Of a stretch of 45,909 bases of DNA, positions 2,683-42,597 are shown one piece after another. This DNA comes from a virus. The notes below the pieces were generated by a model, which ran no database searches, was not told the origin of the DNA, and was given only the letters and a program-made list of their open reading frames with translations. The position numbers and the translations under genes were made by a program. Each line of letters opens with the position of its first letter. Position 1 is the first letter of the stretch. Location: the IMG/VR virus record IMGVR_UViG_3300000230_000009, positions 1-45,909 of that record; one strand, written 5' to 3'.

Positions 2683-2700
2683 ATAATAATTTCTTATTGT

Positions 2701-2731: not shown

Positions 2732-2787
2732 ATTTATCATGACCGCTGAATTTTTGATAAATGTAACATTGTATTTTTATATTTTTA

Positions 2788-2796: not shown

Positions 2797-2800
2797 AACT

Positions 2801-5939: not shown

Positions 5940-6958
5940 AACGCGCTTTAACGTATGATGATGTTCAGATTATTCCAAAATATTCTGAAGTAAAAAGTCG
6001 ATTGGAATGTAAATTAAATACAAGATTTACAAAAAATAAGTATATAAATATACCAATCATTGCTTCGCCAATGGACACAATATGTGGCAGTGACATGGCA
6101 AACACATTGCGACATCTTGGTGGTGTAGGTATTTTGCATCGTTTTTGTTCTATATCAGAACAGTGTTCATATATTGATAAACAAACATCGTGTTTTCATG
6201 TAGCTGCTGTTGGTGTAACGGGTGATTGGTGGGAACGCAGTGTTGAATTAATTAATCATGGATGTGACGTTTTATTATTAGATGTTGCACATGGTAATCA
6301 TATAAATGTAAAAAATGCAATAAATAAAATAAAGAGTGTATATTCTAATATTGAAGTAATTGCTGGTAATGTTTGTACTTATGAAGGTGCAAAGAATTTA
6401 TGTGAATGGGGTGTTGATTGTGTTAGGGCTAATATAGGAAACGGTGCGATGTGTACTACACGTATAAATACTGGTGTGGGTATTCCGTCAATAACATCTA
6501 TTTTAGATTGTGTTAGGGCGTGTGATGCATTTGATGTTCCTGTGATTGCCGATGGTGGAATACGATACCCGGGCGACATTGCTAAAGCACTGGCATGTGG
6601 TGCCGACTCAGTTATGCTTGGTTCTTTACTTTCAGGGACATATGAAACACCGGGCGAAATCCAGAAAATTGGTATATGGCCAAACGAAACATTATATAAG
6701 AAATATCGAGGAAGTGCATCACTTGATATGAAACTTGATAATGGTTACTCCAAACAAAATGTAGAGGGTGTAAGCAAACTTGTTCAATATAAAGGATATG
6801 TTAAACATATTATTGACGATATACTAGATGGTATCAGATCATCCATGAGCTACGTTGGAGTCACGAATTTAACTGAATTTAGAATAAATGCGGAACTAAT
6901 TGAAGTGACGCATTCTGGTATTATTGAAGCGTCTCCACATGGTTTGGAAAAAAAATAA
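5936..6958 (+). CDS. guaC-like: IMP dehydrogenase/GMP reductase family enzyme, GMP-reductase-like
   Basis: With the ATG at 5936, which overlaps the previous stop as ATGA, the protein is 340 residues, the length of GMP reductase and shorter than CBS-containing IMP dehydrogenases. A second in-frame ATG at 5924 would add four residues. The TIM-barrel signatures are clear: IIASPMDT, LLLDVAHG near 113-120, the catalytic loop with Cys173 in AMCTTRINTGVGIP, then VIADGGIR and the phosphate-binding ADSVMLGS. The C-terminal DILDGIRSSMSYVGVTNL is closer to GMP reductase than to IMP dehydrogenase, and the Arg of the IMPDH flap (EGRV) is absent (VEGVSK). The likely reaction is NADPH-dependent GMP to IMP, feeding purine balance during phage replication. 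IMP dehydrogenase activity cannot be excluded. Confidence 0.85.
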   Translation: MKRALTYDDVQIIPKYSEVKSRLECKLNTRFTKNKYINIPIIASPMDTICGSDMANTLRHLGGVGILHRFCSISEQCSYIDKQTSCFHVAAVGVTGDWWERSVELINHGCDVLLLDVAHGNHINVKNAINKIKSVYSNIEVIAGNVCTYEGAKNLCEWGVDCVRANIGNGAMCTTRINTGVGIPSITSILDCVRACDAFDVPVIADGGIRYPGDIAKALACGADSVMLGSLLSGTYETPGEIQKIGIWPNETLYKKYRGSASLDMKLDNGYSKQNVEGVSKLVQYKGYVKHIIDDILDGIRSSMSYVGVTNLTEFRINAELIEVTHSGIIEASPHGLEKK

Positions 6959-14653: not shown

Positions 14654-17600
14654 ATGGAAAACTGTAATAATTTAGAAGTTAATTTAGAAGTTAATTTAGA
14701 AAAAATAACACATATCGTTCATATAAGTGATATACATATTCGCTTAACAAAACGACATGATGAGTATAGAGAAGTTTTTGACCAACTTTATGCGGAAATA
14801 AAACAGACACCGGAAACAACACTTATCATTAATACCGGAGACACCTTACATTCTAAAACCGATTTATCCCCCGAATGTGTGAGTCTAGCATCTGAATTAT
14901 TAAAAAAATTAGCAGACATACGACCGTTGGTTATGATACTTGGAAATCATGACCTAAATCTTTCAAATTCAAATCGTTTAGATTCGTTGTCACCGATTGT
15001 TACTGCATTGAACCATCACAATATATTTTATTTAAAAAACAGTGGGTTATATAAAATAAAAAATGTATTATTTAATGTATATTCTGTTTTAGAAGAACCG
15101 GAAAATTATTTAAAAAATTCAGACATTCCATCTAGATATACCGATAATATCGATTGTTTGATTAACTTGTATCATGGTTCGGTTGATGGTATTAAAACAA
15201 ACACTGGATACACTATAAAAAATCCAAGGATGCCATTGGACAAATTTGATGGTGCGGACATTACTATGCTCGGTGATATTCACATTTATAAAACGCTGCA
15301 AGAGTATGATAAATTTAACAAGAAACCGGTTATAGCATACGCGTCATCAATAATATCACAAGATCATTCTGAAACGGATAAATATCATGGTTATATTTTA
15401 TGGAATGTCATAGATAAAACACATGAATATAAAATATTGGATAATCCTTATGGATTTTTTACAGTTGAAATTGTAGATGGTAACTTGGTCACCGACATGT
15501 CTTCGTGTCCTAAAAATCCAAAACTTCGTGTAAAACATACAAATACGGGATTAACAGAAGTTAAAGAACGTGTTTCGGAATTAAAAAATAAGTATCAACT
15601 TTCTGAATTGTCATATGTGCGGTGTGATGCTACTGCCATTGATAATGTAAATTCAGAATCTAACAACAAGTTAGATGACTGGAATATATCAGATATAAAT
15701 GCACAAAATACATTGATCTTGGAATATTTACTGAAACGAGGTGAATTTCTTACAGAAGAACAAAAAGATAATTTGTTTACATTAAATAGAAATATAAACG
15801 CTGAATTGGGAAAAGAAGATTACATACGGCATATTAGGTATAAATTAAAAAAACTTGAATTTGATAATTGTTTTTGTTATGGTGAGGGTAATGTCGTTGA
15901 TTTTTCAAAACTAAAAGACATTATCGGTTTATTTTCAAAAAATGCATCAGGTAAATCATCACTTGTAGAGGTGTTGTGTTTTGCTCTATTTGATAAAACA
16001 TCGAAAGCATTCAAAGCATCAAAAATAATCAATACTGAAAAGAATTATTTATTTTGCAAAGTGACATTTGAGATTAATGGTATTGACCATGTCATTGAAC
16101 GCCGAGGCGTTAAAGATAAAAAAGGTAACATTAAAGTAGATGTCAATTTCTATAAAATAGAAAATGAAAAAGTTATTGAATTGAATGATGAAGCAAGACG
16201 CGGGACAAATGCTGTAATACGCGATTACATTGGATCATTCGAAGATTTTTGTTTGACTTCAGTGGCATTGCAGGGGAAAGACACAGCGTTTATTGATCTA
16301 GGTCAAACTGAGAAAAAAGATTTATTTAATCGTTTTATGGGAATTAATATTTTTGATTCTTTGCATGAAATTGCGGTAGATAAATTTAAACAAACCAATG
16401 CTATATTGAAAAACTTACAAAAGGAAGACTTCACAACCGATCTTGCCAATATACAAAAAAAACTTGAAATCATAAAGTCACAGTTCCAAGACTGTAAATC
16501 AGAATATGATAATAAAATAATATCATTGGAGCAATGTGGAACATTAATTGTTGATAATACATCGAAACTTATAAAAACACATGCTACCAGTGAGAATTTA
16601 AATATAAAGAAACTAACAGCCACAAAAGAGAATTTAGAAAACGAGCGAAACACATTTATCTCTAAAGAATTAAAAATTAAATCCGAATTGAGTGAAATGA
16701 TACAACTGGCAACCAACTTAAATGCCAAATTTGAACAGTTATATGCAAATAGAGATGTCGAGTCACTTTATAAACAGTATAATGAAAAATTTATAGAACA
16801 TAAAGACATGTTGCATACATTTGAATTAAAGAAGATGTATATAAGTGAGCAATTTAAAAAATTACAACATCTTTCTGAACATAAATATGATCCAAATTGT
16901 GCATACTGCATGAACAATGTTTTCGTAAAAGATGCAATAAAAACAAAACAAGAATTAGAGGCTGAAAAAGTAACAATCAATCATTTGAAAGACGGGATCG
17001 CACTGCTGAATGACGAACTTACATCGTTTGGAACAATAGAGGTAGATTATAAAGAATATAAATTATTGGAAAATGAAAAAAATTTATTAAAAGACAAGGC
17101 TATTCGATTGAAGAAATCTCAGATGGATGTAGAAAATAAAATATTGAAGATTAATCAAGAATATTCTGGGATACTACATGCTATAGAACTATATGAAACA
17201 AACAAAGAAAACATACATAACAATTCATTGATTTCTACAAAGATCGAAGAAATCAAAAAAGTAAAACTTGCTCTGACAGAAAAAACACGCGAATTAAATA
17301 AGCAATTGTTGAAACTTAACGGTGACATTTCTAAATTGGAGCACCAGGAAACAGATATTAAAACGAACATTGAAATCGCCAGGAAAATGGAAGACGATAT
17401 TATAATATATAATTATTATATTTCTGCGATCAGTCGAGATGGTCTGCCGTATGATTTAATCTCGGAATCATTACCTCGTATAGAAAATGAAGTAAATAAT
17501 ATACTGTCTCAGATTGTTGAATTCTCCATGCGTATTAGAACAGACGGAAGCAATATATTGACTAATATTGTATATGATGATAAAGAATGGCCATTAGAAC

Positions 17601-17875
17601 TATGTTCTGGTATGGAAAAGTTTTGTTCTGCACTTGCCATGCGTGTAGCACTAACTACGGTATCCAGTATACCAAAGAGTGATTTTTTAATTATTGACGA
17701 AGGGGTTTCTGTATTGGATGCGGAACATATGTCAATGATACATTCATTATTTACATTTCTAAAAACAAATTATACTTTTATCATGGTAATTTCACATTTA
17801 GATTTAATGCGCGATATTGTAAATTCTCATCTAGAAATACAATGTTCCGGTGAATATTCTAAAATAAATAATTAG
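14654..17875 (+). CDS. 47-46: Fused Mre11-Rad50-type recombination nuclease (gp47-gp46 in one chain)
   Basis: The 1073-residue protein joins two enzymes that are separate in T4 and most bacteria. Residues 1 to about 395 are an SbcD/Mre11 phosphoesterase with SDIHI (Asp26, His28), TGD (Asp63), GNHD (98-100), a His in YHGS near 173 and GDIHIY near 206. From about 397 an SbcC/Rad50 ATPase follows: Walker A SKNASGKSS near 427-435, long coiled coils, a CAYC zinc hook near 750, signature ELCSGMEKF near 984 and Walker B LIIDEG near 1012-1017. All key residues are present, so the protein should process DNA ends for recombination-dependent replication. The N-terminus has a short duplication (LEVNLEVNLE), also visible in the DNA. 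It starts one base after the primase gene. Confidence 0.92.
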   Translation: MENCNNLEVNLEVNLEKITHIVHISDIHIRLTKRHDEYREVFDQLYAEIKQTPETTLIINTGDTLHSKTDLSPECVSLASELLKKLADIRPLVMILGNHDLNLSNSNRLDSLSPIVTALNHHNIFYLKNSGLYKIKNVLFNVYSVLEEPENYLKNSDIPSRYTDNIDCLINLYHGSVDGIKTNTGYTIKNPRMPLDKFDGADITMLGDIHIYKTLQEYDKFNKKPVIAYASSIISQDHSETDKYHGYILWNVIDKTHEYKILDNPYGFFTVEIVDGNLVTDMSSCPKNPKLRVKHTNTGLTEVKERVSELKNKYQLSELSYVRCDATAIDNVNSESNNKLDDWNISDINAQNTLILEYLLKRGEFLTEEQKDNLFTLNRNINAELGKEDYIRHIRYKLKKLEFDNCFCYGEGNVVDFSKLKDIIGLFSKNASGKSSLVEVLCFALFDKTSKAFKASKIINTEKNYLFCKVTFEINGIDHVIERRGVKDKKGNIKVDVNFYKIENEKVIELNDEARRGTNAVIRDYIGSFEDFCLTSVALQGKDTAFIDLGQTEKKDLFNRFMGINIFDSLHEIAVDKFKQTNAILKNLQKEDFTTDLANIQKKLEIIKSQFQDCKSEYDNKIISLEQCGTLIVDNTSKLIKTHATSENLNIKKLTATKENLENERNTFISKELKIKSELSEMIQLATNLNAKFEQLYANRDVESLYKQYNEKFIEHKDMLHTFELKKMYISEQFKKLQHLSEHKYDPNCAYCMNNVFVKDAIKTKQELEAEKVTINHLKDGIALLNDELTSFGTIEVDYKEYKLLENEKNLLKDKAIRLKKSQMDVENKILKINQEYSGILHAIELYETNKENIHNNSLISTKIEEIKKVKLALTEKTRELNKQLLKLNGDISKLEHQETDIKTNIEIARKMEDDIIIYNYYISAISRDGLPYDLISESLPRIENEVNNILSQIVEFSMRIRTDGSNILTNIVYDDKEWPLELCSGMEKFCSALAMRVALTTVSSIPKSDFLIIDEGVSVLDAEHMSMIHSLFTFLKTNYTFIMVISHLDLMRDIVNSHLEIQCSGEYSKINN

Positions 17876-21895: not shown

Positions 21896-24800
21896 ATGCT
21901 CAAAACATTAAACAGAAATGATAAAACATTACGTCCATTCTATACATATAAAAATTGGGTAATAGATACAACGTTAAACGAAGATTTAATTATAAATGAG
22001 ACAGGTGACGATATTTATCTGTATCACTATTCATCATCTATAGAAGGTGAAGTTTCTGGTTCACTAGCAACGCAGTTTCAATCATACACATTTGAACAAT
22101 ACCCCATCGAAGGATTAAAGCTTTCTGGACACTTTTATGAATTAAGTGATCCATATTATGAAACCGGTAGTAATCCATTAAATTGGAATATGAAATACAA
22201 ACGTGTTGTATTTTCTACCGTGGATCACATGTTTTATCGACACCAAGACTCACAACTACAAACATTTGGTATAGAAAAATACGATATAGGTCCGAATGGT
22301 GAACGGGAGATTCGTACAATACACGATAGAGTCAATATATTAAATATAATTCAAAATATATATGGTGAAAAAATCAAACCAAATAGTATAGATATTTATG
22401 ATTATTCTGCACATGATGAAGTATATCATATTAAAGATGACGGTTATACAAATCTAATACTTCAAGATAAATATTTTTCAAATATACAGCAGATACAACC
22501 ACCAATTCGCTCACCACAAATGGAAAAGCAATATGATATTGCACATGAGCGTTTTGGTAAAAAAATATGTGCAAGTAATCAATATATCATTGTTGGTGCT
22601 CCATTAGATAAAAATAGTTTAACATACTATAAAAATGGAAATGCATTTCTGTATAGAATTGATACCAGTTCTATGCAAAATGGTATAAATTATAAATTTA
22701 TAAAGCAGTTTGAAACACCATTTATGCAAAATGGATATTCATATGAACAAGTATGGGATTACACATCTCAAATAAAAAATAATTTAGGATTTTACTTATT
22801 ACCCGAACAAACTCCTATAAACGTCATAGACGAATTTGGTGAATCGGTATCTTTAAATGACGATTTTATGGCGATTGGAGCACCCGGTTCATCATATTAT
22901 GGAAATAATATAGACTCTAGCGGTCAGGTGTTTGTTTATGATAAATATAAAGGTGGCTTTGATCACTGGGGATTAATTAATATATTAGAAGGCTCAGGGT
23001 CAAACGACCGGTTTGGGTCAGCCGTATGTGTAAGTGGAAGCAAACTTGCAGTCGGTGCGGAAAATGCATATGATGGTAAGGGTGCAGTTTATATATACGA
23101 AAGATTGAAGATTGGTTCAACATTACCAACCGGTTCTTTCTGGCACATAGCAACTGCAAATCCAGAATTCTGGTTAGCAATGGTTGACGAACTCGGGGAC
23201 ACACTTATTGTATCTGAGGATACTAGTCCAGACTACACTGAAGGAAACAATGTCTATATATTACAGCATGTTGTTACTAGCAGCGAGTGGACAACCGGTT
23301 CATATTTCGGTGGTAGTTTGAAGATGGACAACAACCGTATTGTGGTAGGGTCTAAATATAGCAGTTCACATTCATCTGTATATATGTTCGAATATGATAA
23401 TAATGCAATTGGAACTGGTATATATGATACGTCATCATTTTTAACACCTACTGGAAATTTAGCATTTGGAACAGGGTCATGGACACAGTCATATGTATTT
23501 TCACCATCGAGTATCACAGTTGGGGGCACAACACAAACACATTCTATAAATTTAAATAGAACAAATTATTTTTTTCCAACACAAGTCACAGTCGTTCCAA
23601 ATAATAAAGATTCCTTCGGATATTCATTGGATTTTAATTCGACACATATGGTTGTTGGTGCACCATTTGATAGAGAATTTTACGAGTATAGTGGCTCACC
23701 AATATCATACAAAGCCGGTGCTGCGTATGTTTTTAACTATACACATAGCAACTGGATATTAACTGATAAATTATATGGACGTGAAATAGACACTGTAAAT
23801 AATTTATTTGGTATTGATGTCGCATTGTATAAAAATAAAATTGCGGTCGGCTCACCAATAGCACCATATGATATATATAATTTCTACGACACAAGCTCCA
23901 AGCGATTTAGGGTTGAAAATTTATATAGTGGTGCAAGAAATGCGTCATACTATAAATTTAATACAGGAGAGGCATTTTTATACGAATTAAACACGTCATC
24001 AATATGGGAACCATTGAAAACTATAAAACGTATAAAATATGAATTCGAACCTAAGGGTTTATATGGTTACGGTATTGATATTTTTGAAAATGCATTGGTT
24101 GTTGGATCTCCAGTTAATTCATATACAAATATACCGCATGACACCACTAGTTGGCCTAAAGAATCCGGTAGTTTAGAATCTTCGTTTATACGAAAGAATG
24201 CACCTTACTTTTTAACCGGCTCTGTGTTTTTATATGATTTAAATTTATTATTGGAAAATCACCAAATAGGAAATTCATTTTATAAAAACGGAATATTCAC
24301 AAATACAGCAACGGCATCAATGTTTAAAGATATATTTCAAGGAAATGTTGTAAATGTAAATGACCAACGTGGATATTCATGCAGTTTTCAAGGAACACAT
24401 ATGGTTAATGAAAACGAGATATTCTGTTCAATTGATCCAGGTGAGTTTAATGTTTCCACGAATCCAACTTCGTTGAAATATTTTCCAATTTATTACGATA
24501 TTGAAAAGGACGGATTTTTCAGTTTGTATGATGCCACACTTATATCTAAATATATATTAAAACAATATAATGGATTAATATCTGGTAGCATTTATCCTCC
24601 TGAATACAGAGATACTAGTTCGGCAAAAACTTCCCCAGAAAACAGTTGGTGGAAAGACGATTTAGTATTGTTAGAATCGGAAGATGTTCTGCTGTTTGAA
24701 AATTGGATCGAACCAACCGTGGTCACATCTTCTTATACAAATTACTATGATACGATTCACACGTTGGATCAAGATGGGCTACTAGATGTCAACTTAGATG

Positions 24801-25156
24801 GTAAAACTGACTATAAAGATGCACATCTTATCATGCGGTATTTCTTAGGTTACGGTGGATTAAAACTCACTTCGGGATTAACAGATGATACCTGTCAACG
24901 TAGATATGACGATCAAATCCGAGCATTTTTAGATTTAATGACTGGTAAATTAAATGATAAATATATACGAGATGAATTTTTTAATTATGCAGAATCTTCT
25001 TCATGTGACAAAACAGGTAGCTATTTAGCATCATTTGTGACAACCGTTGGATTATATCAGGATAATGAACTAGTAATGGTAGGAAAACTAGCAAAACCTA
25101 TAAAAAATAGTGGAGATTATCCTATAACATTTAATATTAAGTTTGATTCATTTTGA
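21896..25156 (+). CDS. Large fibre/structural protein: FG-GAP beta-propeller, dockerin-like loops and shared C-terminal module
   Basis: The 1086-residue protein contains about seven repeats of an FG-GAP type, each a [FY]G...V/I-x-V/A-GxP core: near 217 (FGKKICASNQYIIVGAPLD), 311 (FMAIGAPG), 370 (FGSAVCVSGSKLAVGAENA), 475 (RIVVGSKY), 568 (FGYSLDFNSTHMVVGAPFD), 633 (FGIDVALYKNKIAVGSP) and 723 (YGIDIFENALVVGSPV). Seven blades would close an integrin-like propeller. Two calcium loops of the dockerin/EF-hand type follow, at 868-879 (DIEKDGFFSLYD) and 964-975 (DVNLDGKTDYKD), each with a following helix. The last ~65 residues match the end of the previous gene product. The likely role is a tail-fibre or decoration protein that binds sugars or proteins on the host; the binding target is unknown. 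Confidence 0.75.
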   Translation: MLKTLNRNDKTLRPFYTYKNWVIDTTLNEDLIINETGDDIYLYHYSSSIEGEVSGSLATQFQSYTFEQYPIEGLKLSGHFYELSDPYYETGSNPLNWNMKYKRVVFSTVDHMFYRHQDSQLQTFGIEKYDIGPNGEREIRTIHDRVNILNIIQNIYGEKIKPNSIDIYDYSAHDEVYHIKDDGYTNLILQDKYFSNIQQIQPPIRSPQMEKQYDIAHERFGKKICASNQYIIVGAPLDKNSLTYYKNGNAFLYRIDTSSMQNGINYKFIKQFETPFMQNGYSYEQVWDYTSQIKNNLGFYLLPEQTPINVIDEFGESVSLNDDFMAIGAPGSSYYGNNIDSSGQVFVYDKYKGGFDHWGLINILEGSGSNDRFGSAVCVSGSKLAVGAENAYDGKGAVYIYERLKIGSTLPTGSFWHIATANPEFWLAMVDELGDTLIVSEDTSPDYTEGNNVYILQHVVTSSEWTTGSYFGGSLKMDNNRIVVGSKYSSSHSSVYMFEYDNNAIGTGIYDTSSFLTPTGNLAFGTGSWTQSYVFSPSSITVGGTTQTHSINLNRTNYFFPTQVTVVPNNKDSFGYSLDFNSTHMVVGAPFDREFYEYSGSPISYKAGAAYVFNYTHSNWILTDKLYGREIDTVNNLFGIDVALYKNKIAVGSPIAPYDIYNFYDTSSKRFRVENLYSGARNASYYKFNTGEAFLYELNTSSIWEPLKTIKRIKYEFEPKGLYGYGIDIFENALVVGSPVNSYTNIPHDTTSWPKESGSLESSFIRKNAPYFLTGSVFLYDLNLLLENHQIGNSFYKNGIFTNTATASMFKDIFQGNVVNVNDQRGYSCSFQGTHMVNENEIFCSIDPGEFNVSTNPTSLKYFPIYYDIEKDGFFSLYDATLISKYILKQYNGLISGSIYPPEYRDTSSAKTSPENSWWKDDLVLLESEDVLLFENWIEPTVVTSSYTNYYDTIHTLDQDGLLDVNLDGKTDYKDAHLIMRYFLGYGGLKLTSGLTDDTCQRRYDDQIRAFLDLMTGKLNDKYIRDEFFNYAESSSCDKTGSYLASFVTTVGLYQDNELVMVGKLAKPIKNSGDYPITFNIKFDSF

Positions 25157-25183: not shown

Positions 25184-28100
25184 ATGTTATTGGAAAATTT
25201 TAAATTTATTACATTTGATGGTGATGAAAAATCATATATAACATCATCGTATAAATCATCGCATTTTATTAGAGGACACCACCTGGCGCAATCTGAAGTT
25301 AGAACGATGGTAAATACAGCATCGTTATATCACTGTGATTTTGGTAAAGACGAAAAAGATCAGATTGAATTTTTCATATACAATGAATCTGGTAAGATCA
25401 TGTCAAATATGGTGATAACATCGTCACATGTTTATACGGATATAACACGTTCGTACACTGACATACATGGCATAAAAACGTCATATTCATTTTCAAAATT
25501 AAATAACTCATATGTAGTTCTAAATGGAAAGCAACAGCGGGCGCCAGATGGTGAAAAAATAAGTGATGAGTTGTTAATATCGCCTATAGATGATCTGAAT
25601 AAATTTGATCTATCAGACGGATCATATAAGATATGTTACTCACCTATACGAAATGTCGTTGGTGACAGGACAAATCGGTTAATAATAAAAGAAATATCAA
25701 ATGACGGTCGTGAAATTGTCGCATTACCTGCATATCCTAGAAATGATACATCACATGCGAATGTCATTAATGAATTCTATGGTTTTGCTAGTTATTCTTT
25801 TATTGTAAGAGAAATTATAGATGACATTGAATATAATTTAAATAATAACAATTTATATGATGCAATGCGGTCATTTATTGATACAAATAATGATTTATAT
25901 AAACAGATTTCATTTTTATATTCATTTAAAAATGAAGCAGTTCTATATGAATTCTGCTCAAAATTATTTGATATAATAAAATTTCAATACCAACAAACAT
26001 TGTTCGCATCATACAACAACATTGTTCAATATGCCGACTTAGATAATTATTTTAATAGATTATGTTCGTATATAGTTGATAGAGAACTGACCAGAATAAA
26101 CAATAATTTACCAATACATTTATTACCAGATTATATTCTACATATTGCATTTTTTTATAATATATTTGATTCTATATTGGGATTGCTTAGTATTAGAAAT
26201 AAAAAATTTGAGTCTAAATTCGGATTGCTTAGAAATTATATAAATTTCGGCGATGGCTCGATGCAACCGATTTTAACATGGAAAAATCTTAGATTAGAAA
26301 CGTATCCAAATAAACAACAGCATTTTCCAATAATATTAAAACTCTTATATCCGTTACCAACCCAGTTTAAGGTTGGCTCTGAATTTTACATATCAAACAT
26401 ACAATCATCACCACGTGTCTTTAATGTCACGTTATATAAACCATCAGAATACAATTTGCGACATATTAGAAACCCAAATTTTAATATACGAACTGAGAAT
26501 TCTGGAGAAGCAACTAAGACATATACATTTGACGAATTAGTGTCAAGTGGAAGTGCTGTCACGCAAAAACTATTGAATCACATCAATCAAAATGTATTCG
26601 ATAAAAATTTAAATATAGACTATTCTGTGTTGGAAGAATTTGTTCAATTTTCATCGGTTACAGATAGAATATCAGTGTATGACCAAAAAACTGAAAATAT
26701 AGAATATTTAAATCAAAAGATTTCAGAACTGAATAGTTATGCAACACAATCATATAGCATATATTATGACACTGAAAAATTAAAATATATCAATGAAATA
26801 AATAATATAAAAACAAATTTTGACGGGTATGAAAAGTTTTTATACTATTCACCACTGGAAAATGGTGTGCCTTGGAGAGATATACATTATCAATCTGCAT
26901 CATATTATGACAAGTTTAACGACAACGCATTGATAAACAATGTTCCACGTGAAATAATCGATGACCCAGAATGTCGTGAATATAGACGTTTTTTATCAAT
27001 GATTGGTCATCATTTTGATTTGATATATGCATATATAAAAAATTTCCCAACTATAAAATTTGCAGAAAATAATCCGAATCTCGGGATAACACAGAACATG
27101 GTATATCATGTTCTGACGTCCTTGGGATTTGATGCGTTTAGTGGACAGGATACACAGGACTTGTGGCTTAGTCTTTTTGGTGATGGTGTTGATGATTCTA
27201 ATGACAATATATATGCTACCGGTTCGCTTGAAACGATCTCCGGACAAGCAAGAACTAAAACTATATGGAGACGGATACTTAATAATTTTTCATATATAGT
27301 GAAAACAAAGGGCACCGAAGAGTGCATTAGAGCGATCATGTCGTGCTATGGTATACCAAAATATTTATTTAAGATACGTGAATATGGTGGTATAGAATAT
27401 TCTACTGACATTACACAGGATTCATTATTTATATTTGATTCTAACAATTATTATGTGCGATTTTCCGGTAGCATGGATTATCTAAAAACAACATGGTTCG
27501 GCGATGCAAAGAGTTTAGAATTTAAGGTAAAATTCAATGAATATGAAACTGATTTGAACGGGTCAAATTTTAGAATAATATTAAATGATACAAATTGGTC
27601 AGTTGGATTCTTACGTGTGTCTGGAAGTTGGGGAAGGGGATATTTTACATTAACCGATGCAAATGTTGTGTCCGGTTCGTCATTGGTACAGACGATGACG
27701 ACAGATTTAATACCGGTGTTTAACGGTGACATATACTCGGTGTTACTTAGAAAAAATGATAAAAACCCATATTTTGACTATAAGAAAATCACCACCGAGT
27801 TAGAATTAGATTTAATACCTATACAATATGATTTGCTGGTTTCTAAAACAGTCGATGAACGTGTTGTAAACTTCGTATCATCTAGTTTGATTGTGTCTGG
27901 TTCGATGAATACTGCATTTAGAACCGGTAGTAACTTATATATCGGAAATTATTCTGTAAATTCACAAGCTGATTTGTTCTATGGAAATCTGGACCAACTG
28001 AAAGTGTGGAAACAGGCTGTCAAAAATGAAAGATTTAATAACCATACAATGTTTAATAGTTCATATGATTCAGAAAATCCATACAACACAGTCGAAAACT

Positions 28101-29338
28101 TATTATTAAAAATTGATTTTGATTTTCCTGTGTCACTTTATACTACAGGAAGTTATGTTTCCATCCCAAATCAATCATATAATAAATCCAGAACCGAATA
28201 CATAGAAGCATATAATTTCCAAAATGTTCCTGGTTATCCATACAACTTTACACTGTTTGAGAACAGGGAAGTTGTTAATATGCCAAATATGTGTTCGGCT
28301 AAATTCCGTAATAATAAAATACGGAAAGAAGAAATGAAACTGGTATCAAATCTATCACCATTACAACGATCTACATTAAAATCAAGAGATCGGCATCCGG
28401 TTGATTCCAATGGATTAGGTGTATTTTTTTCACCAGTAGACCTGATTGATGATGATATTTTAAAATTTTTTGGAAATTATAACATAAGTGATTTTATTGG
28501 AAACCCATTTGATTACTATAAACCATTATATAGAAGATTTGAAAAGTTCAGAGAAATATATTTTAAGAACGGTGGTGGAAGAGTTGACTTTCAAACATAT
28601 ATAAATTTAGTAAAAGCATATTTTGATAAATCAGTATTTAAGCATTTAAATCAAGTTGCACCTGCACGTGCATCATTTAAAAGTGGATTGTTGATTGAAC
28701 CAACGCTTCTGGAAAGAAATAAATATGAAAACAAACATGTAATACAAAGCATACATCATGTATCATGTTCTATGCATGTGGGACGACCGGCTGATGGTAT
28801 AGTTATATTATCATTGAATTCTGAAATTGATGTATTTGATAAAATCAATAATACACCCAATCCAAATTATTTATATTGCTATCAACCTCTGGAAGAATGG
28901 CAGTATCAAATACATGCAGATGATGATGGCGGTGTCACGTTTGTATCTGAATTTACTACAAACAAAATTTCCAGATTTAAAGCAGAAGCGGTAACCGTAA
29001 AAAAATCATATACCATATTAAATAATTTAAATAAACCCGAGACGATCTATAAAGATTTTAATGTTGTAAATTTAATACGAATTGATAATAATTTCACAGG
29101 TAGTCTATCTCAAATACCGTTGTCAAGTCCAACGGCAAAAGTATTTAAAGGATACCATAAAAACCATTATCGTACCCACCGAAATACTATCGGACATCAT
29201 ACCATGTTGACACAAGAAGATACAACAAATTCAGAAGGTTTGTTAGACAACTCATTGCCATTTTATACAACACGTGTTGATAAAACATCAATTAATGTGG
29301 AAAACAATCAAAATTTAAATATTTTAACAACAAGTTGA
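25184..29338 (+). CDS. Very large virion structural protein with LamG/concanavalin-like domain
   Basis: The 1384-residue protein is the longest in the window. The N-terminal ~700 residues are mixed alpha/beta with a long helical section (about 200-370). Around 754-945 lies a LamG or concanavalin-A-like sandwich: YYVRFSGSMDYLKTTWFG, SLEFKVKFNEY, a variable middle, SNLYIGNYS and FYGNLDQLKVWKQAV, the last being the typical closing strand of such domains. The region after that (950-1384) is rich in Asn, Tyr and Phe and has no motif I know. It is probably a tail-fibre or baseplate-rim protein binding a host glycan. It ends the fibre run and is followed by a late promoter-like element and a small gene before terminase. 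Confidence 0.65.
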   Translation: MLLENFKFITFDGDEKSYITSSYKSSHFIRGHHLAQSEVRTMVNTASLYHCDFGKDEKDQIEFFIYNESGKIMSNMVITSSHVYTDITRSYTDIHGIKTSYSFSKLNNSYVVLNGKQQRAPDGEKISDELLISPIDDLNKFDLSDGSYKICYSPIRNVVGDRTNRLIIKEISNDGREIVALPAYPRNDTSHANVINEFYGFASYSFIVREIIDDIEYNLNNNNLYDAMRSFIDTNNDLYKQISFLYSFKNEAVLYEFCSKLFDIIKFQYQQTLFASYNNIVQYADLDNYFNRLCSYIVDRELTRINNNLPIHLLPDYILHIAFFYNIFDSILGLLSIRNKKFESKFGLLRNYINFGDGSMQPILTWKNLRLETYPNKQQHFPIILKLLYPLPTQFKVGSEFYISNIQSSPRVFNVTLYKPSEYNLRHIRNPNFNIRTENSGEATKTYTFDELVSSGSAVTQKLLNHINQNVFDKNLNIDYSVLEEFVQFSSVTDRISVYDQKTENIEYLNQKISELNSYATQSYSIYYDTEKLKYINEINNIKTNFDGYEKFLYYSPLENGVPWRDIHYQSASYYDKFNDNALINNVPREIIDDPECREYRRFLSMIGHHFDLIYAYIKNFPTIKFAENNPNLGITQNMVYHVLTSLGFDAFSGQDTQDLWLSLFGDGVDDSNDNIYATGSLETISGQARTKTIWRRILNNFSYIVKTKGTEECIRAIMSCYGIPKYLFKIREYGGIEYSTDITQDSLFIFDSNNYYVRFSGSMDYLKTTWFGDAKSLEFKVKFNEYETDLNGSNFRIILNDTNWSVGFLRVSGSWGRGYFTLTDANVVSGSSLVQTMTTDLIPVFNGDIYSVLLRKNDKNPYFDYKKITTELELDLIPIQYDLLVSKTVDERVVNFVSSSLIVSGSMNTAFRTGSNLYIGNYSVNSQADLFYGNLDQLKVWKQAVKNERFNNHTMFNSSYDSENPYNTVENLLLKIDFDFPVSLYTTGSYVSIPNQSYNKSRTEYIEAYNFQNVPGYPYNFTLFENREVVNMPNMCSAKFRNNKIRKEEMKLVSNLSPLQRSTLKSRDRHPVDSNGLGVFFSPVDLIDDDILKFFGNYNISDFIGNPFDYYKPLYRRFEKFREIYFKNGGGRVDFQTYINLVKAYFDKSVFKHLNQVAPARASFKSGLLIEPTLLERNKYENKHVIQSIHHVSCSMHVGRPADGIVILSLNSEIDVFDKINNTPNPNYLYCYQPLEEWQYQIHADDDGGVTFVSEFTTNKISRFKAEAVTVKKSYTILNNLNKPETIYKDFNVVNLIRIDNNFTGSLSQIPLSSPTAKVFKGYHKNHYRTHRNTIGHHTMLTQEDTTNSEGLLDNSLPFYTTRVDKTSINVENNQNLNILTTS

Positions 29339-29356
29339 TGTTTATTAAAAACATAA

Positions 29357-29365
29357 CTATTTATA
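29357..29365 (+). promoter_or_regulatory. Candidate late promoter element CTATTTATA with separate ribosome site
   Basis: Here the element is 16 bases before the ATG at 29381 and is followed by a good Shine-Dalgarno site AAGGAG (29369-29374), so this transcript would have a short normal leader. It would drive the terminase-portal operon. Confidence 0.5.
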
Positions 29366-29380
29366 TATAAGGAGAAATAT

Positions 29381-29632
29381 ATGGCAACAGCAAGTGATAT
29401 AAATTCAACGGCATTTAACAATGTTCGATCACGTGAATCATTAACCGTAGATATGGAGACACGGTGGGAACAAAGCAAATTGCCATCCAAACAATATCCA
29501 TCTCTAGCAGTAAATCATCTTGTCGACACCTTTGCAAAGGGTTTCACAGTGAAAACACAATTGTTTCACAGTAGTTTTACAAATCATCCATCCAGAATGA
29601 CACAAGGGTTTTCAAATAGACGATATAAATAA
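29381..29632 (+). CDS. Small protein before terminase, unknown
   Basis: The 83-residue product is soluble and basic at its end (MTQGFSNRRYK), with a helical centre (DMETRWEQSKL, AVNHLVDTFAKGF). It has the best ribosome site of this region (AAGGAG, six-base spacing). Its place just before the large terminase is where a small terminase subunit often lies, but at 83 residues without a recognisable DNA-binding helix-turn-helix this cannot be claimed. A virion or tail-completion role is equally possible. Confidence 0.65.
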   Translation: MATASDINSTAFNNVRSRESLTVDMETRWEQSKLPSKQYPSLAVNHLVDTFAKGFTVKTQLFHSSFTNHPSRMTQGFSNRRYK

Positions 29633-29655
29633 AATCAGTCGAGAATTGTTTTAAT

Positions 29656-30234
29656 ATGTCAGAAGTTTCAATTAGACAGCAGATAAAGGAAGAATACAAG
29701 AGATGTATAGAATCACCCGTGTATTTCATGAAAAAATATTGTAAAATTGAACACCCGTTGCATGGGTCAATTCAATTCAATCTATTCAAATTTCAAGAAA
29801 TGACATTGGAACAATTCAATGAACACCGGTTCAATATTGTTTTAAAATCTAGACAGATGGGAATTTCAACATTGGTTGCAGGATATACATTGTGGCTAAT
29901 GACATTTTTTGAATCTAAAAAAATACTAGTTATCGCAACCACACAAAACACCGCAAAAAACTTGGTAACAAAAGTTAGATTCATGCAAACAAATTTGCCA
30001 AACTGGTTAAAACAAAAAAGCATTGAAGATAATAGATTGTCTCTGAAATTTAAGAATGGATCCGAGATTGTAGCTGTTAGTTCCGCATCTGATTCTGCCC
30101 GGTCAGCAAGCTGTTCATTGTTAGTATTAGATGAATGTATTACTGGTGAGTCCGTTGTAACTGTACGTGATAAGGCTACCGGTGAAATAATGGACATTAG
30201 TATAGAAGATTTGTACGAATCTATGGGTGTTTAA
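29656..30234 (+). CDS. terL: Large terminase, N-terminal part fused to N-half of a split intein
   Basis: The 192-residue ORF carries the first 160 residues of a gp17-type packaging ATPase: an adenine-binding/Q-like region near 43-52, Walker A SRQMGIST at 65-72 and Walker B LLVLDE at 155-160. Right after catalytic Glu160 the sequence turns into an intein: Cys161 opens block A (CITGESVVTV), and the ORF stops after 32 intein residues (..IEDLYESMGV). Alone, this piece lacks the rest of the ATPase and the nuclease and cannot work. Trans-splicing with the product of the next ORF would join LDE to CAFIEG. The intein Cys replaces nothing in the host protein, since the C-extein also starts with Cys. 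The stop is followed by five bases and the next ATG. Confidence 0.92.
   Translation: MSEVSIRQQIKEEYKRCIESPVYFMKKYCKIEHPLHGSIQFNLFKFQEMTLEQFNEHRFNIVLKSRQMGISTLVAGYTLWLMTFFESKKILVIATTQNTAKNLVTKVRFMQTNLPNWLKQKSIEDNRLSLKFKNGSEIVAVSSASDSARSASCSLLVLDECITGESVVTVRDKATGEIMDISIEDLYESMGV
30136..30231 (+). other. Split intein, N-half (32 residues, block A only)
   Basis: It begins with the nucleophile Cys1 in CITGESVVTV (block A) and ends IEDLYESMGV. The half contains block A but not block B, so the split is much earlier than in DnaE-type split inteins, where it lies just before block F. Length and ending resemble my recollection of the AceL-TerL N-intein (about 25 residues ending near IEDLY). Confidence 0.9.
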
Positions 30235-30239
30235 TATAT

Positions 30240-30578
30240 ATGTTTGCTATAACTAAAAACAATAAGTATGACGTTTTAACCAAAGATGGGTTTAGGGTAT
30301 TTGGTGGTATAAAGCGTGTTATGGAAAAACAGACAATATACACTGTGTATTTTAAAGAAAAAAATAAAATAAAATGCACGGATGGACATGTGTTTGAAAT
30401 GTCAGATGGAACATTTAAACGCTTATTACAATTGAACCCAAATGATGTTGTAAAGGGCATTGATGGTGACCTGATTGTCAAAAAAATAATAAAATCACCA
30501 CGAAAAAATACTGTATATGATCTAGTTGATGTTGGTGGTGACCGCACATATTTTGCCAATGGTGCTAGTATTCATAAT
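30240..30578 (+). other. Split intein, C-half (113 residues, blocks B and F)
   Basis: It starts with MFAITKNNKYDV and has block B with TDGH (residues 47-50) and a terminal block F: TVYDLVDVGGDRTYFANG, then ASIHN with penultimate His and terminal Asn, followed by the +1 Cys of the C-extein. All splicing residues are present. There is no homing endonuclease domain. The MF start and the GF..F.GI pattern soon after recall the AceL-TerL C-intein. Confidence 0.9.
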
Positions 30579-31709
30579 TGTGCATTTATCGAAGGTGTTG
30601 AAGATATATGGCTTTCTGCACAATCAACAATTTCTACAGGTGGGTCTGCTATATTATTATCTACACCAAGAGGAAAAGGAAATTTCTTTCATAAAATGTG
30701 GACTGAGGCAGAAGCATCATTAAATGGATTTAATACAATAAAATTAAAATGGGATTTGCATCCGGAACGTGATGCGACCTGGCGAGATGAGCAGAGTAGA
30801 ATTTTAGGAGAAAAGGGATCGGCCCAAGAATGTGATTGTGACTTTTCTAGTTCGGGTGATACGGTCATTGAACAATCTGTAATAGATTTTTATAAACAAA
30901 CATCTATTATTGAACCCATTGAGAGACGGTATGTAGATAGAAATTATTGGATTTTTTCATATACTGTCCCAAATCGACAATATATAATATCGGCTGATGT
31001 TGCACGGGGTGATGGTGATGATTTCTCTGCATTCCATATAATTGACGTGGAAACACTGGAACAAGTCGCTGAATATAAAGGAAAAATACCACCAAAAGAA
31101 TTTGGAAATCTACTAGTGGTAGCCGGTATAGAATATAATACAGCCGTAATAGTTGTTGAAAACTTAAATGTGGGAAATATAACAATACAGCAATTGATTG
31201 ATAGAAGTTATCCAAATCTATTTTATTGTTCCGCTGATTTACAATATATTGATGTCGAAAATCAGATAACGAATAAGTTTAATAAACAATCAAATAAAAT
31301 GGTTCCTGGATTCACAACTACCAATAAAAATAGACCGTTGATTATATCAAAATTGGATTCATATTTTAGGGAAAAATCATTGATTTTACATTCTATACGT
31401 TTAATTGAAGAATTGAATGTTTTCATATGGAACAATGGAAAAGCCGAGGCAATGCGAGGCTACAATGATGATTTGGTGATTTCACTTGGTATTGCTTTAT
31501 GGGTACGAGATACGTATTTTAGACTAAACCAAGAAAGTTTAATGTCACAAAAATATATAATTAATAACATCAATTGCAATACCGGTGATACATTTTCCGG
31601 TGGCGGTGTGTCTGGTGGACGTAACCGAGATACCGGGTTATATACAAGAACATCAATTGATAACGACCCGTGGTATGCAGATGGTTTTAATTTGAGAGAA
31701 TTGTTGTAA
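30240..31709 (+). CDS. terL: Large terminase, C-half of a split intein fused to C-terminal part
   Basis: Of 489 residues, the first 113 are intein and the remaining 376 are terminase: CAFIEGVEDIWLSAQ completes the ATPase (with the coupling motif STPRGKGNF near residue 140), and an RNase-H-like nuclease follows with ADVARGDGDDFSAF, VVVENLNVG and NDDLVISLGIALW carrying the acidic metal ligands. After splicing, the mature protein would have 536 residues, a normal size for gp17-type motors, which cut and pump concatemeric DNA into proheads. The ATG is five bases after the stop of the first half, in a different frame. There is no clear Shine-Dalgarno site, so coupling is likely. A 70-base gap leads to the portal gene. 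Confidence 0.92.
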   Translation: MFAITKNNKYDVLTKDGFRVFGGIKRVMEKQTIYTVYFKEKNKIKCTDGHVFEMSDGTFKRLLQLNPNDVVKGIDGDLIVKKIIKSPRKNTVYDLVDVGGDRTYFANGASIHNCAFIEGVEDIWLSAQSTISTGGSAILLSTPRGKGNFFHKMWTEAEASLNGFNTIKLKWDLHPERDATWRDEQSRILGEKGSAQECDCDFSSSGDTVIEQSVIDFYKQTSIIEPIERRYVDRNYWIFSYTVPNRQYIISADVARGDGDDFSAFHIIDVETLEQVAEYKGKIPPKEFGNLLVVAGIEYNTAVIVVENLNVGNITIQQLIDRSYPNLFYCSADLQYIDVENQITNKFNKQSNKMVPGFTTTNKNRPLIISKLDSYFREKSLILHSIRLIEELNVFIWNNGKAEAMRGYNDDLVISLGIALWVRDTYFRLNQESLMSQKYIINNINCNTGDTFSGGGVSGGRNRDTGLYTRTSIDNDPWYADGFNLRELL

Positions 31710-31763
31710 AACAAATCGGTTAAAATAACTAATTGGGCTGACCGTTTAATAATGTTTATCAAT

Positions 31764-31772
31764 ATATATATA
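31764..31772 (+). promoter_or_regulatory. Candidate late promoter element (AT repeat) before portal
   Basis: ATATATATA lies six bases before the ATG at 31778 without a Shine-Dalgarno site. It is a weak match because AT repeats are common here. Confidence 0.3.
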
Positions 31773-31777
31773 CATCT

Positions 31778-33763
31778 ATGGATATTTTTACTGGATTAAA
31801 ACAATTATTTTCATCAAATGTCATTATAAGAAATATTGGTGGTAAAAAACTTAAAATTGCTGACACTGATGGGTATCAGATGACACCCGAAGCACACTTG
31901 CATGATAAATTTGCAAAGATGTTTTCATCCACATATATGGGCCACATGAATGACACCAATGTTCTGTCACACAATTCAAACCGTTTGGAAATTTTTAAAG
32001 ACTATGATGCGATGGACCGTGATCCAATCATTGCAGCAGCAATCGATATAATTGCAGACGAATGTTGTACAGCAAATCCATATAATGAAATACTCTCAAT
32101 AACATCTCAAAATGACAATATCAAAGAAATTTTATATAATTTATATTATGATATTCTAAACATAGAATCAAATCTATGGTCATGGATTCGAAATCTTGTA
32201 AAATATGGTGATTTTTTCTTATTATTGCAAATTTCAGAAGAATATGGTGTCTATAATATAATGCCAATGACGCCGTATAGTATGACACGGGTTGAAGGCT
32301 CAGACGATTCAAATGTGAACTATGTATATTTTGAAATAGAACATTCTAAAAAGAATAAGTTTGAAAACTACGAAGTTGCACATTTCAGACTATTAAATGA
32401 TTGTGGTATTTTACCATATGGCAGAAGTCATATTGAACCTGCTAGACGTGTGTGGAAACAATTGACATTATTAGAAGATGCCATGTTGATTCATAGAGTA
32501 ATGCGAGCACCTGAAAAACGAATTTATAAAATTGATGTCGGTAATATACCAGCAAATGAAATCGACTCACATATGAATACTGTTATATCACGTATAAAAC
32601 AAATTCCATTTGTTGATAACCGAACCGGTGAATATAACTTGAAATTTAATTTACAAAATATGGTGCAAGATTTCTTTTTTCCAGTTCGTGGTGGTGACAG
32701 TGGGACAGCCATAGAGAGTCTTCCTGGAATGACTTGGTCTGGAATTGAGGACTTGAATTATTTAAAACATAAACTTTTTTCAGCATTGCGGGTCCCAAAA
32801 GCATTTTTAAATTTCGATGAAAACGCGGGGTCAAAATCCAGACTGAGTATGGAAGATTTGAGATTTAGCCGAACCATTGAAAGAATTCAACAGATCGTAT
32901 TATCAGAATTAAAAAAAATCGGAATCATTCATCTGTATGCACAGGGATATAAAGATGAAGAATTGCTCGATTTCAATATACAATTGACAAATCCATCTAC
33001 TATACATGAACAAGAAAAGGTAGCATTATGGGCAGAAAAGACAACACTTGCAAAGGATTTGATGGATTCAAAACTGATGTCACGTGATTGGATTTATAAA
33101 TATTTATTCAATATGACCGGTGAGGAAGTTGAAAATGAACGTGAAAAAATACTTGATGACTTAAAAGAAGAATACAGAAGTGAGCAAATTAAAACGGAAG
33201 GTGTGGATCCAGCGATGTCGGAAAATGAAAAACAGATTGATTCGATTGGTGCAGGTAAATCTTCTGGTGGTGATGATCTAGGGGGTGATGATCTAGGGGG
33301 TGGTGATTTGGGTGGTGGTGATTTGGGTGGTGGTGATTTGGGTGGTGGTGATTTGGGTGGTGGTGGTGGTGATTTGGGTGGTGGTGATCTAGGGGGTGGT
33401 GGTGGTAGTAACTCTAGTGCAACCGGTGATGTATCCGGTGGATCAACTGACACCGCTCCTATAACCGAAACAAAAAAATTCAGTGAGATGACTGACAAAG
33501 AAAAAAATGCATTTTTTAAAGCGCAAGGTAAACTCGGTGGTTTAGCCGGAGGTCGACCTAAAAAAAATAAGCATCGTCTTGGAACTGATGGTCATCATGC
33601 CGGACGTGATTATAATGGACGACTAGAAATGCGCCGCAGAGCAAGACAAGATGGAACGACAATATTAAATACTAAAAAGAGTCGCCGTAAATATGAACCG
33701 ATAAGTTTAATGGAAGAACAATTATTCGCACTTGATGATTACTTGTCAATGATTGCTAAATAA
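31778..33763 (+). CDS. 20: Portal protein, gp20-like, with Gly/Asp-rich C-terminal tail
   Basis: The 661-residue protein matches gp20-type portals: AMDRDPIIAAAIDIIADECC near 78-97, a GDFFLLLQIS strand, the CGILPYGRSHIEPARRVWKQL stem region near 208-228, LIHRVMRAPEKRIYKIDVGNIP near 236-257, and PGMTWSGIEDLNYLKHKL plus RVPKAFLNF near 314-345. Portals form the dodecameric ring at one head vertex through which DNA is packaged. The unusual part is the tail: from about 497 a tandem (GGGDL) repeat encoded by a 12- to 15-base DNA repeat, then a basic end (GGRPKKNKHRLG) and a last helix with a LMEEQLFALDDYL motif. T4 gp20 has no such repeat. The gene directly follows terminase, so the sheath and tube genes usually found between them are absent here. 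Confidence 0.92.
   Translation: MDIFTGLKQLFSSNVIIRNIGGKKLKIADTDGYQMTPEAHLHDKFAKMFSSTYMGHMNDTNVLSHNSNRLEIFKDYDAMDRDPIIAAAIDIIADECCTANPYNEILSITSQNDNIKEILYNLYYDILNIESNLWSWIRNLVKYGDFFLLLQISEEYGVYNIMPMTPYSMTRVEGSDDSNVNYVYFEIEHSKKNKFENYEVAHFRLLNDCGILPYGRSHIEPARRVWKQLTLLEDAMLIHRVMRAPEKRIYKIDVGNIPANEIDSHMNTVISRIKQIPFVDNRTGEYNLKFNLQNMVQDFFFPVRGGDSGTAIESLPGMTWSGIEDLNYLKHKLFSALRVPKAFLNFDENAGSKSRLSMEDLRFSRTIERIQQIVLSELKKIGIIHLYAQGYKDEELLDFNIQLTNPSTIHEQEKVALWAEKTTLAKDLMDSKLMSRDWIYKYLFNMTGEEVENEREKILDDLKEEYRSEQIKTEGVDPAMSENEKQIDSIGAGKSSGGDDLGGDDLGGGDLGGGDLGGGDLGGGDLGGGGGDLGGGDLGGGGGSNSSATGDVSGGSTDTAPITETKKFSEMTDKEKNAFFKAQGKLGGLAGGRPKKNKHRLGTDGHHAGRDYNGRLEMRRRARQDGTTILNTKKSRRKYEPISLMEEQLFALDDYLSMIAK
33266..33407 (+). 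repeat. Tandem Gly/Asp/Leu repeat in the portal gene
   Basis: Units of GGTGGTGATTTG, with variants GGGGGTGATGATCTA and extra GGT triplets, run for about 140 bases and encode GGDDL, GGGDL and GGGGGDL. Unit number is likely to vary by slippage. The reverse strand shows a Pro-rich frame that is only a shadow. Confidence 0.9.
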
Positions 33764-40734: not shown

Positions 40735-42597
40735 ATGAATGTCACGTGTAAACAATATAATATAAAAAAACAAGCAATTTGTACTATATGTGGATGGTTA
40801 TCATCTGATTTAAAAAACAAGACTGGATCATGGACAAAACATTTAAAAAACATTCATAATATAGCTGATGATGTTGAAAGTAATTTTAAAATTATTGATT
40901 ATAAAAAATCTGATATATTTAAATGTCCGATGTGTGATTGGCAAACATCTGATATAAAAAACCGATCTGGAGTAATAACATCACACATTATTAAACAACA
41001 TCAGATAACCGTGTCGGATTTCTGCAATAAATACAACAATTGTAGAGAATTATTTGTTAAACAGCTTAAAAAAGAATTACGTGATTTGTTTTTGAATTTA
41101 AATGATGAAAATAGAATACGCTGTGAAATATGTAATAAATATTTTAAAAAATTATCAAATACACATTTAAAATCACATGGAATAACACCAACTGTATATA
41201 AACAGAAATATAACATATACAGCACAAACTCAATTAGAACAGGTAAACTACAATCAACATATACATGTAAATTAAACACAACACATAATTTATATAATAG
41301 AACATCTAACTATGAAATTGGAATTGCTGACATTTTAACACGGCTAAATATAAATTTTATAAAATCATTTTTATATAATGGAAAAAAATTTGACTTTTAT
41401 ATACCACATTTAAATATGGTTCTTGAAATTGACGGTGATTTTTTTCATCCAATAAAGTTGGAAAAATTAACAATAAAAACAATTAATAATACCATTAATG
41501 ATTTTGAAAAAGATAATTTAATGCAAGAATCGCCCTACAAATTTCATAGAATTCGGTATAACAAAAACCATAACATAACAACCGAAACGGAGTTCATTAA
41601 ATACATAGAAAACGCATCTTATAAAAAGGATTACAGATTAAATGGCGATCAAGTATTTTTAGAAAAGGAATATCTTAGAAAATATATAGCTATCAAATCA
41701 AAAGATGATTTAATTAAATATGTCCCACTGATTTATAAATTTATAAAAACATTTCATGCAACCTTTCCATTGATACAAACCAGTGAAAACTTAAAGGATG
41801 TTATAAATAAAATACAAACATATGACATGTCATTGGTTTTAAAAAACGATACGTTCATACAATCATGTTGGAATGTAGGAACGTCATATTTGAAGTCAAA
41901 CTTTAAAAGTTATTGGAAATCACATTTCAATAACAAATCATCTCCTGTAAATGCATGGGAAGATACTAAGATTATGTTAGATATTATAAAATATAGAATA
42001 GGTTGCAATGCCTCCAATGAGATTTTTGACATATCTCTGAATGAAATAATTAATGGTTTAAAAGCATCCCGATACACAATATCATTTTTCAAACCGCTAC
42101 TGGCATCCGCTATATATAAACATTATTTAGGTGGGAGCAAATCACCGACTGTTTTAGATCCATGTTGCGGATTCGGTGCAAGATTACTTGGATTTAAAAG
42201 CATTTATCCAGATGGAACATATATCGGATGTGAACCGAATAGTGAGACATATTGTGAATTAATGGAACTGATAAAAAATGGAAAATTTTCAAATGTAAAG
42301 ATATTCAATTGTAAATTTGAAGATTACACCGATACTATGGATGTGGATTTAACGTTCACTAGCATTCCTTATTTTGATACTGAAATTTATAGTAAACATA
42401 TATATTACGAGAATTTTAATGCATGGGAAAATACATTTATTTCTAAAATAACTAAATGTAAATCTTGCTATATAAACACGACTATCGGGTTGGGCAATCA
42501 ATTGGGATGGAACAATATAGATAAATATATAAAATTAAAACGTTCTCATTTTGATAAAACGCGAGGATACAAACAGGAAGCAATATTTAAAATATAA
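40735..42597 (+). CDS. Zinc-finger / Vsr-like nuclease / DNA methyltransferase fusion protein
   Basis: The 620-residue protein has three parts. The N-terminus has three zinc fingers: C16-x2-C19-x16-H36-x4-H41, a second with identical spacing (C64, C67, H84, H89), and a MucR/Ros-like one (C130, C133, H144, H148) followed by GITPTVYKQKY. Residues about 190-290 look like a PD-(D/E)XK nuclease of the Vsr/DUF559 kind: Glu194, Asp220 in FDFYIP, then LEIDGDFFHP (Glu231, Asp233, His238) and FHRIRYNKNH. The C-terminal part has a SAM-binding motif LDPCCGFGARLLGF near 470-483 and TSIPYFD near 541, a variant of the TSPPYFD catalytic motif of amino-methyltransferases. A mobile or defence-type enzyme that cuts and marks DNA is likely; specificity and activity are unknown. 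It lies behind the capsid terminator and is two bases from the next gene. Confidence 0.8.
   Translation: MNVTCKQYNIKKQAICTICGWLSSDLKNKTGSWTKHLKNIHNIADDVESNFKIIDYKKSDIFKCPMCDWQTSDIKNRSGVITSHIIKQHQITVSDFCNKYNNCRELFVKQLKKELRDLFLNLNDENRIRCEICNKYFKKLSNTHLKSHGITPTVYKQKYNIYSTNSIRTGKLQSTYTCKLNTTHNLYNRTSNYEIGIADILTRLNINFIKSFLYNGKKFDFYIPHLNMVLEIDGDFFHPIKLEKLTIKTINNTINDFEKDNLMQESPYKFHRIRYNKNHNITTETEFIKYIENASYKKDYRLNGDQVFLEKEYLRKYIAIKSKDDLIKYVPLIYKFIKTFHATFPLIQTSENLKDVINKIQTYDMSLVLKNDTFIQSCWNVGTSYLKSNFKSYWKSHFNNKSSPVNAWEDTKIMLDIIKYRIGCNASNEIFDISLNEIINGLKASRYTISFFKPLLASAIYKHYLGGSKSPTVLDPCCGFGARLLGFKSIYPDGTYIGCEPNSETYCELMELIKNGKFSNVKIFNCKFEDYTDTMDVDLTFTSIPYFDTEIYSKHIYYENFNAWENTFISKITKCKSCYINTTIGLGNQLGWNNIDKYIKLKRSHFDKTRGYKQEAIFKI

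What the first reader, a model, noticed from the sequence alone, without database searches (positions are those of the whole stretch)
29656..31709. Naturally split intein divides the large terminase into two genes
The terminase reading is broken after LDE at the Walker B site. The first ORF continues with a block A start (CITGESVVTV) and stops after 32 intein residues. The second ORF starts five bases later in another frame with 113 intein residues that carry TDGH, YFANG and a terminal HN followed by Cys. All splicing residues are present and no endonuclease is. The break before block B is rare; I recall the same place in the metagenomic AceL-TerL intein, so this may be a complete genomic context for that class.
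Basis: partly seen in the sequence, partly recalled or inferred. Interest (0 to 1): 0.95.

Follow-up and report, generated by a model that had tools for sequence, protein, structure and literature searches.

The report
Split intein in phage terminase gene
A phage's DNA-packaging motor gene is cut in two by a self-splicing protein element that most likely stitches the halves back together; it is real but belongs to a family already studied and, as shown here, common in phages.

Summary
ORF1 (29656-30234) encodes the first 160 residues of a T4-type large terminase (TerL) up to Walker B LVLDE, then a 32-aa N-intein. After 5 bases, ORF2 (30240-31709) encodes a 113-aa C-intein ending in HN, then Cys+1 and the other 376 terminase residues. 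All class 1 splicing residues are present. The C-half models with confidence as an intein fold (pLDDT 92). Its only direct sequence match in the PDB is CatC, the consensus of the atypically split TerL inteins (6DSL, E 1e-8), and its start aligns with CatC's start. Protein trans-splicing is the best explanation; splicing itself is not shown.

It is not unusual as a kind. The same insertion site holds inteins in dozens of phage records and IMG/VR contigs, including cultured phages with complete genomes: E. coli HY03, Yersinia phiR1-RT and Campylobacter phages (CPX has its halves 22 kb apart on opposite strands). Most split environmental copies carry a nuclease ORF between the halves. Some have only a 77-168 bp spacer, one a decayed nuclease. 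The window, with 5 bp, is the tightest split seen. So it is a new member of a known kind, not the first genomic context for the class.

The parts
29656..30135 (+). TerL N-extein, 160 aa, ATPase half up to Walker B LLVLDE
   Evidence: PHROG terminase large subunit families, E 6e-46 and 1e-20; 61% identity to the intein-less Microcystis phage Mel-JY01 TerL
29848..29871 (+). Walker A-type P-loop SRQMGIST
   Evidence: read from translation; motif assignment from knowledge of T4 gp17
30118..30135 (+). Walker B LLVLDE; the intein follows the catalytic Glu directly
   Evidence: translation
30136..30231 (+). N-intein, 32 aa, Cys1 ... YESMGV
   Evidence: aligns with 13 other N-inteins of split TerL inteins, 31-44% identity, same length class 31-41 aa
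30232..30239 (+). TAA stop of ORF1 plus 5-bp spacer TATAT; no ORF, no endonuclease
   Evidence: spacer comparison
30240..30578 (+). C-intein, 113 aa, with block B TDGH, block F VYDLVDVGGDRTYFANG and terminal HN
   Evidence: CatC 6DSL E 1.4e-8; AlphaFold2 model pLDDT 91.8; Foldseek and VIA matches to inteins
30579..31709 (+). TerL C-extein, 376 aa plus stop, starting with Cys+1 (CAFIEG), nuclease half
   Evidence: PHROG terminase families 4e-21 and 8e-16; 58-59% identity to many intein-less TerLs starting at the Cys+1 region

Best explanation
The terminase is made as two proteins. The 32-aa tail of the first and the 113-aa head of the second associate into one HINT-fold intein. The intein cuts itself out by the class 1 pathway (Cys1 thioester, transfer to Cys+1, Asn cyclisation) and joins ...LVLDE to CAFIEG..., giving one 536-aa large terminase. 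Shown: the anatomy, the homology, the predicted fold of the C-half, and a start codon and split point shared with other split copies. Inferred: that both ORFs are expressed and that splicing happens. The element is a member of the atypically split TerL intein family. It most likely descends from copies that carried a homing endonuclease ORF between the halves, and that ORF is now gone (inferred).
For: All splicing residues are intact. CatC matches from Met to Cys+1, and the fold model matches Cat with Z 14.1 over 105 residues at 29% identity. The Met-to-VLT distance is 11 residues in the window and exactly 11 in L180, L191, L193, L195 and L211; in L180 and L211 that Met follows an intervening ORF of about 1 kb, so the start is a homologous real start. 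Intervening ORFs tested are TnsA-like or GIY-YIG-like nucleases. L206/L216/L221 versus L237 show a 211-bp deletion inside such an ORF in near-identical sequences, 99.6% over the downstream 498 bp. In cultured Campylobacter phage CPX the two halves lie 22 kb apart on opposite strands, so only splicing in trans could join them. HY03 and phiR1-RT C-inteins differ with dN/dS about 0.04, though dS is near saturation.
Against: No expression or splicing data. The N-intein alone matches CatN only weakly (E 0.072). NCBIfam and Pfam intein models score below their curated cut-offs. There is no near relative of the window's own copy in which selection could be measured. Endonuclease loss in the window's own line is inferred from other lineages.
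Confidence: 0.9

Rival explanations
1. A base-call or assembly error of one base between about 30201 and 30240 breaks what is really a contiguous mini-intein.
For: The ORF2 frame stays open back to 30201, so the frames overlap by about 30 bases. Contiguous copies at this site exist: Nitratidesulfovibrio phage SRB7757 (L171), L190 and CP21.
Against: The window's ATG sits at the same distance from VLT as in five split copies, and its N-intein ends at the length of other split N-inteins. The leader TTTAATATAT-ATG resembles the A/T-rich, mostly SD-less starts of the other genes in the window.
Confidence: 0.05
2. A programmed -1 frameshift makes a contiguous precursor that splices in cis.
For: The shift needed is -1 and the frames overlap.
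Against: No X-XXY-YYZ heptamer lies in the overlap, and split relatives with 77-1778 bp between the halves cannot use a frameshift.
Confidence: 0.02
3. The two halves work, or have died, without splicing: a two-subunit terminase or an inactive relic, as in the gene-in-pieces ribonucleotide reductase cited in PMC10448857.
For: Some relatives have lost individual residues: L003 has Ser at the penultimate position, L191 lacks the block B His.
Against: In the window every splicing residue is intact and both extein halves are full-length; the intein parts would not be expected to stay in this state without use.
Confidence: 0.03

Closest known systems
AceL-TerL / GOS-TerL / consensus Cat (PDB 6DSL) atypically split inteins
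   Same: Host protein TerL, short N-half and long C-half (25/104, 37/115 and 30/104 versus 32/113 here; sizes from PMC11766414), Cys1/Cys+1 as in AceL and Cat, C-half homologous end to end with CatC starting at the same Met
   Different: Only about 28-29% identity to Cat; here both whole gene halves and 45.9 kb of surrounding phage sequence are available
Same-site TerL inteins in cultured phages (HY03, phiR1-RT, JK32, Thanatos-2, Campylobacter CPX)
   Same: Inserted at DE|C of a T4-type TerL; split into a short N-half and a ~100-aa C-half
   Different: HY03 and phiR1-RT have a 199-aa ORF between the halves; JK32 and Thanatos-2 have a long extension after the N-intein; CPX halves are 22 kb apart; the window has 5 bp
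Contiguous TerL mini-intein of Nitratidesulfovibrio phage SRB7757 (L171) and IMG/VR L190
   Same: Same site and same intein family
   Different: One ORF, not split
'Fractured gene' arrangement (Dassa et al. 2009, cited from memory and via PMC11766414; paper not held)
   Same: Split intein in a phage gene; relatives such as L003 have a free-standing nuclease ORF between the halves
   Different: No nuclease between the halves in the window

Membership tests
Class 1 intein | Cys or Ser at position 1 | tested here: met
   Cys1 at 30136-30138; invariant in 14 of 14 aligned N-inteins
Class 1 intein | Block B TxxH | tested here: met
   TDGH in ORF2; His column at least 90% conserved
Class 1 intein | Block G His-Asn followed by Cys/Ser/Thr +1 | tested here: met
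   SIHN|CAF
Class 1 intein | HINT fold | tested here: met
   AlphaFold2 model of the C-half (pLDDT 91.8) matches inteins: Foldseek E 5.6e-6 to 6DSL, VIA Z 14. Only the C-half was modelled.
Class 1 intein | Protein splicing activity | not testable with these tools
   Needs expression
Atypically split TerL intein (AceL/GOS/Cat) | Split close to the N-terminus: N-half about 25-37 aa, C-half about 104-115 aa | tested here: met
   32 and 113 aa; Met1 of the C-half aligns to Met of CatC
Atypically split TerL intein (AceL/GOS/Cat) | Sequence homology of the C-half to the family | tested here: met
   E 1.4e-8 single sequence, 1e-26 by profile, to 6DSL_B
Atypically split TerL intein (AceL/GOS/Cat) | Sequence homology of the N-half to CatN | tested here: inconclusive
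   Top hit but E 0.072
Atypically split TerL intein (AceL/GOS/Cat) | Same insertion site in TerL as AceL-TerL | not testable with these tools
   Native extein of AceL-TerL not available; the same site as HY03, phiR1-RT, CPX and L003 is shown
Fractured gene with intervening homing endonuclease | Endonuclease ORF between the intein halves | tested here: not met
   5-bp spacer in the window
Fractured gene with intervening homing endonuclease | Gene broken inside a split intein | tested here: met
Group I/II intron (considered) | Structured intron RNA at the break | tested here: not met
   No Rfam match up to E 1 in 29000-32000

The most novel reading that the evidence does not exclude
The nuclease-free split is kept because it is useful: placing the break at the catalytic Glu keeps the packaging ATPase inactive until both halves are made and spliced, so trans-splicing would time DNA packaging.
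Probability: 0.07. Interest if true: 0.65.

Novelty: new member of a known kind. Interest (0 to 1): 0.4.

Why it matters
Natural inteins with a short N-half are sought for protein labelling, and this adds one, plus about two dozen distinct relatives in phage terminases. The relatives also show what looks like a decay series: intact nuclease between the halves, truncated nuclease, nuclease remnant, short spacer, 5 bp. That makes the origin of natural split inteins by nuclease insertion and loss directly testable in one gene.

Tried and rejected
A close-relative scan with the window's C-intein alone found nothing in IMG/VR, so no near copy of this intein was found there. Group I/II intron: no Rfam match. 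Programmed frameshift: no slippery heptamer. L108, L109, L144 and L153 looked like candidates because the N-half match ran past Walker B, but their terminases read on contiguously. A tblastn display script printed nothing and was not used. The paper of Dassa 2009 is not held and the original AceL-TerL study did not come up in the searches, so those points rest on PMC11766414 or memory. The IMG/VR survey used HN-CAFI codon patterns, which miss copies such as L003 (SN) and therefore undercount.

Full report
What is there. ORF1, 29656-30234, is the N-terminal 160 residues of a T4-type large terminase followed by 32 intein residues. ORF2, 30240-31709, is 113 intein residues followed by Cys and the remaining terminase. 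The spacer between stop and start is TATAT. The joined extein is 536 aa. Families: PHROG terminase large subunit for both halves; the portal, head protease and major head protein follow downstream, so this is a T4-like structural module. The nearest isolates are Microcystis phage Mel-JY01 and Flavobacterium immuto phages, whose terminases are intein-less. The record is a 45.9 kb linear viral fragment.

Why it is an intein. The joined 146-aa sequence has one PDB match, CatC of 6DSL, the consensus engineered atypically split intein (E 1.4e-8). A profile of 21 C-inteins finds CatC at 1e-26, then gp41-1, VidaL and others. The C-half models at pLDDT 91.8 and matches inteins throughout. Cys1, TxxH, the block F Asp, penultimate His, terminal Asn and Cys+1 are all there.

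Why the split is real. In other split copies the C-intein starts with Met at a similar distance from the VLT motif; it is exactly 11 residues in the window and in L180, L191, L193, L195 and L211. In L180 and L211 that start lies after an intervening ORF of about 1 kb, so it must be a genuine start. The N-inteins end at similar lengths. The start context is like that of other genes in the window, which mostly lack a Shine-Dalgarno motif. No slippery heptamer was found. A sequencing error is therefore unlikely but can only be closed by reads.

How widespread it is. In the phage collection, 94 records match the window's C-intein at E up to 10, 88 of them over at least 80% of it; the weakest are not all TerL inteins. 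The same DE|C site is used in HY03, phiR1-RT, JK32, Thanatos-2, SRB7757, CP21 and CPX. PX29 and Providencia PSTRCR_127 use another site (QEH|C) and Delftia PhiW-14 the P-loop. Three codon-pattern scans of IMG/VR gave about 40 further contigs with TerL C-inteins, some of them copies of the cultured phages and some (L203, L210, L235 and kin) at another TerL site. Among 161 loci fetched by terminase similarity (the window's own copy included), only the window and L003 have the insertion, so it is rare per genome but scattered. The extein tree needs about 10 gains or losses of the label (at least 4 forced by well-supported branches), and the window's nearest exteins are intein-less; the intein-bearing rows were picked for the intein, so the counts describe scatter and not frequency.

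The spacer series. 1778-573 bp with a nuclease-like ORF in most (TnsA-like in L003 and L180, GIY-YIG-like in L181); 379 bp with a truncated TnsA-like ORF (L237); 168 bp with its remnant, differing by a 211-bp deletion from that nearly identical sequence (L206, L216, L221); 106 bp (L191), 102 bp (L249, L253), 77 bp (L193); 5 bp (window). I read the window as the end state of nuclease loss. This is inference, since its own line has no sampled intermediate.

Trans-splicing in nature. In Campylobacter phage CPX the N-half (2602-3318, minus strand) ends in a 31-aa N-intein, and the C-half (25271-26599, plus strand) starts with the C-intein. The phage is viable and the terminase essential by general knowledge, so halves of this family very probably splice in trans. 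A related group II phage, vB_CcoM-IBB_35, was already described as having a terminase interrupted by an intein and a homing endonuclease (PMC3322345). Inteins near Walker motifs of phage terminases are also known from mycobacteriophages (PMC5050341).

Verdict. The claim of a first genomic context is not right. New member of a known kind, interest about 0.4; what adds value is the nuclease-loss series rather than the window alone.

Noticed in passing
window 40735-42597: 620-aa protein beside the major head protein gene with zinc-finger-like repeats, a Vsr/DUF559-like motif (FDFYIPHLNMVLEIDGDFFH; motif by eye) and a PHROG HNH-endonuclease match: candidate free-standing homing endonuclease, possibly able to act on other sites.
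   Followed up: partly
window 21896-25156: 1086-aa structural-size protein with FG-GAP repeats (E 1e-28) and a dockerin-like match, unusual in a phage.
   Followed up: no
window 5924-6958: Phage-encoded IMP dehydrogenase, E 1.5e-102, uninterrupted.
   Followed up: no
window 14654-17875: 1073-aa protein with both a calcineurin-like phosphoesterase and an SMC/AAA ATPase domain, like an SbcD-SbcC fusion.
   Followed up: no
L162 5004-6332 and L239 1498-2214 (CPX 2602-3318 minus, 25271-26599 plus): Terminase halves of Campylobacter phage CPX, each with its intein half, lie 22 kb apart on opposite strands.
   Followed up: yes
L206, L216, L221 versus L237: Nearly identical intein regions differing by a 211-bp deletion that turns the intervening TnsA-like nuclease ORF into a remnant.
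   Followed up: yes
L240 and L175 (Campylobacter phage CP21 terminase): Three inteins appear to interrupt one terminase: P-loop, a middle site and DE|C.
   Followed up: partly
L003 5163-6860: The portal gene next to the split terminase carries its own intein-like insertion with an HNH-like stretch.
   Followed up: no
window, whole: Most genes lack a Shine-Dalgarno motif and have A/T-rich leaders, which would fit a Bacteroidota host; host not established.
   Followed up: no
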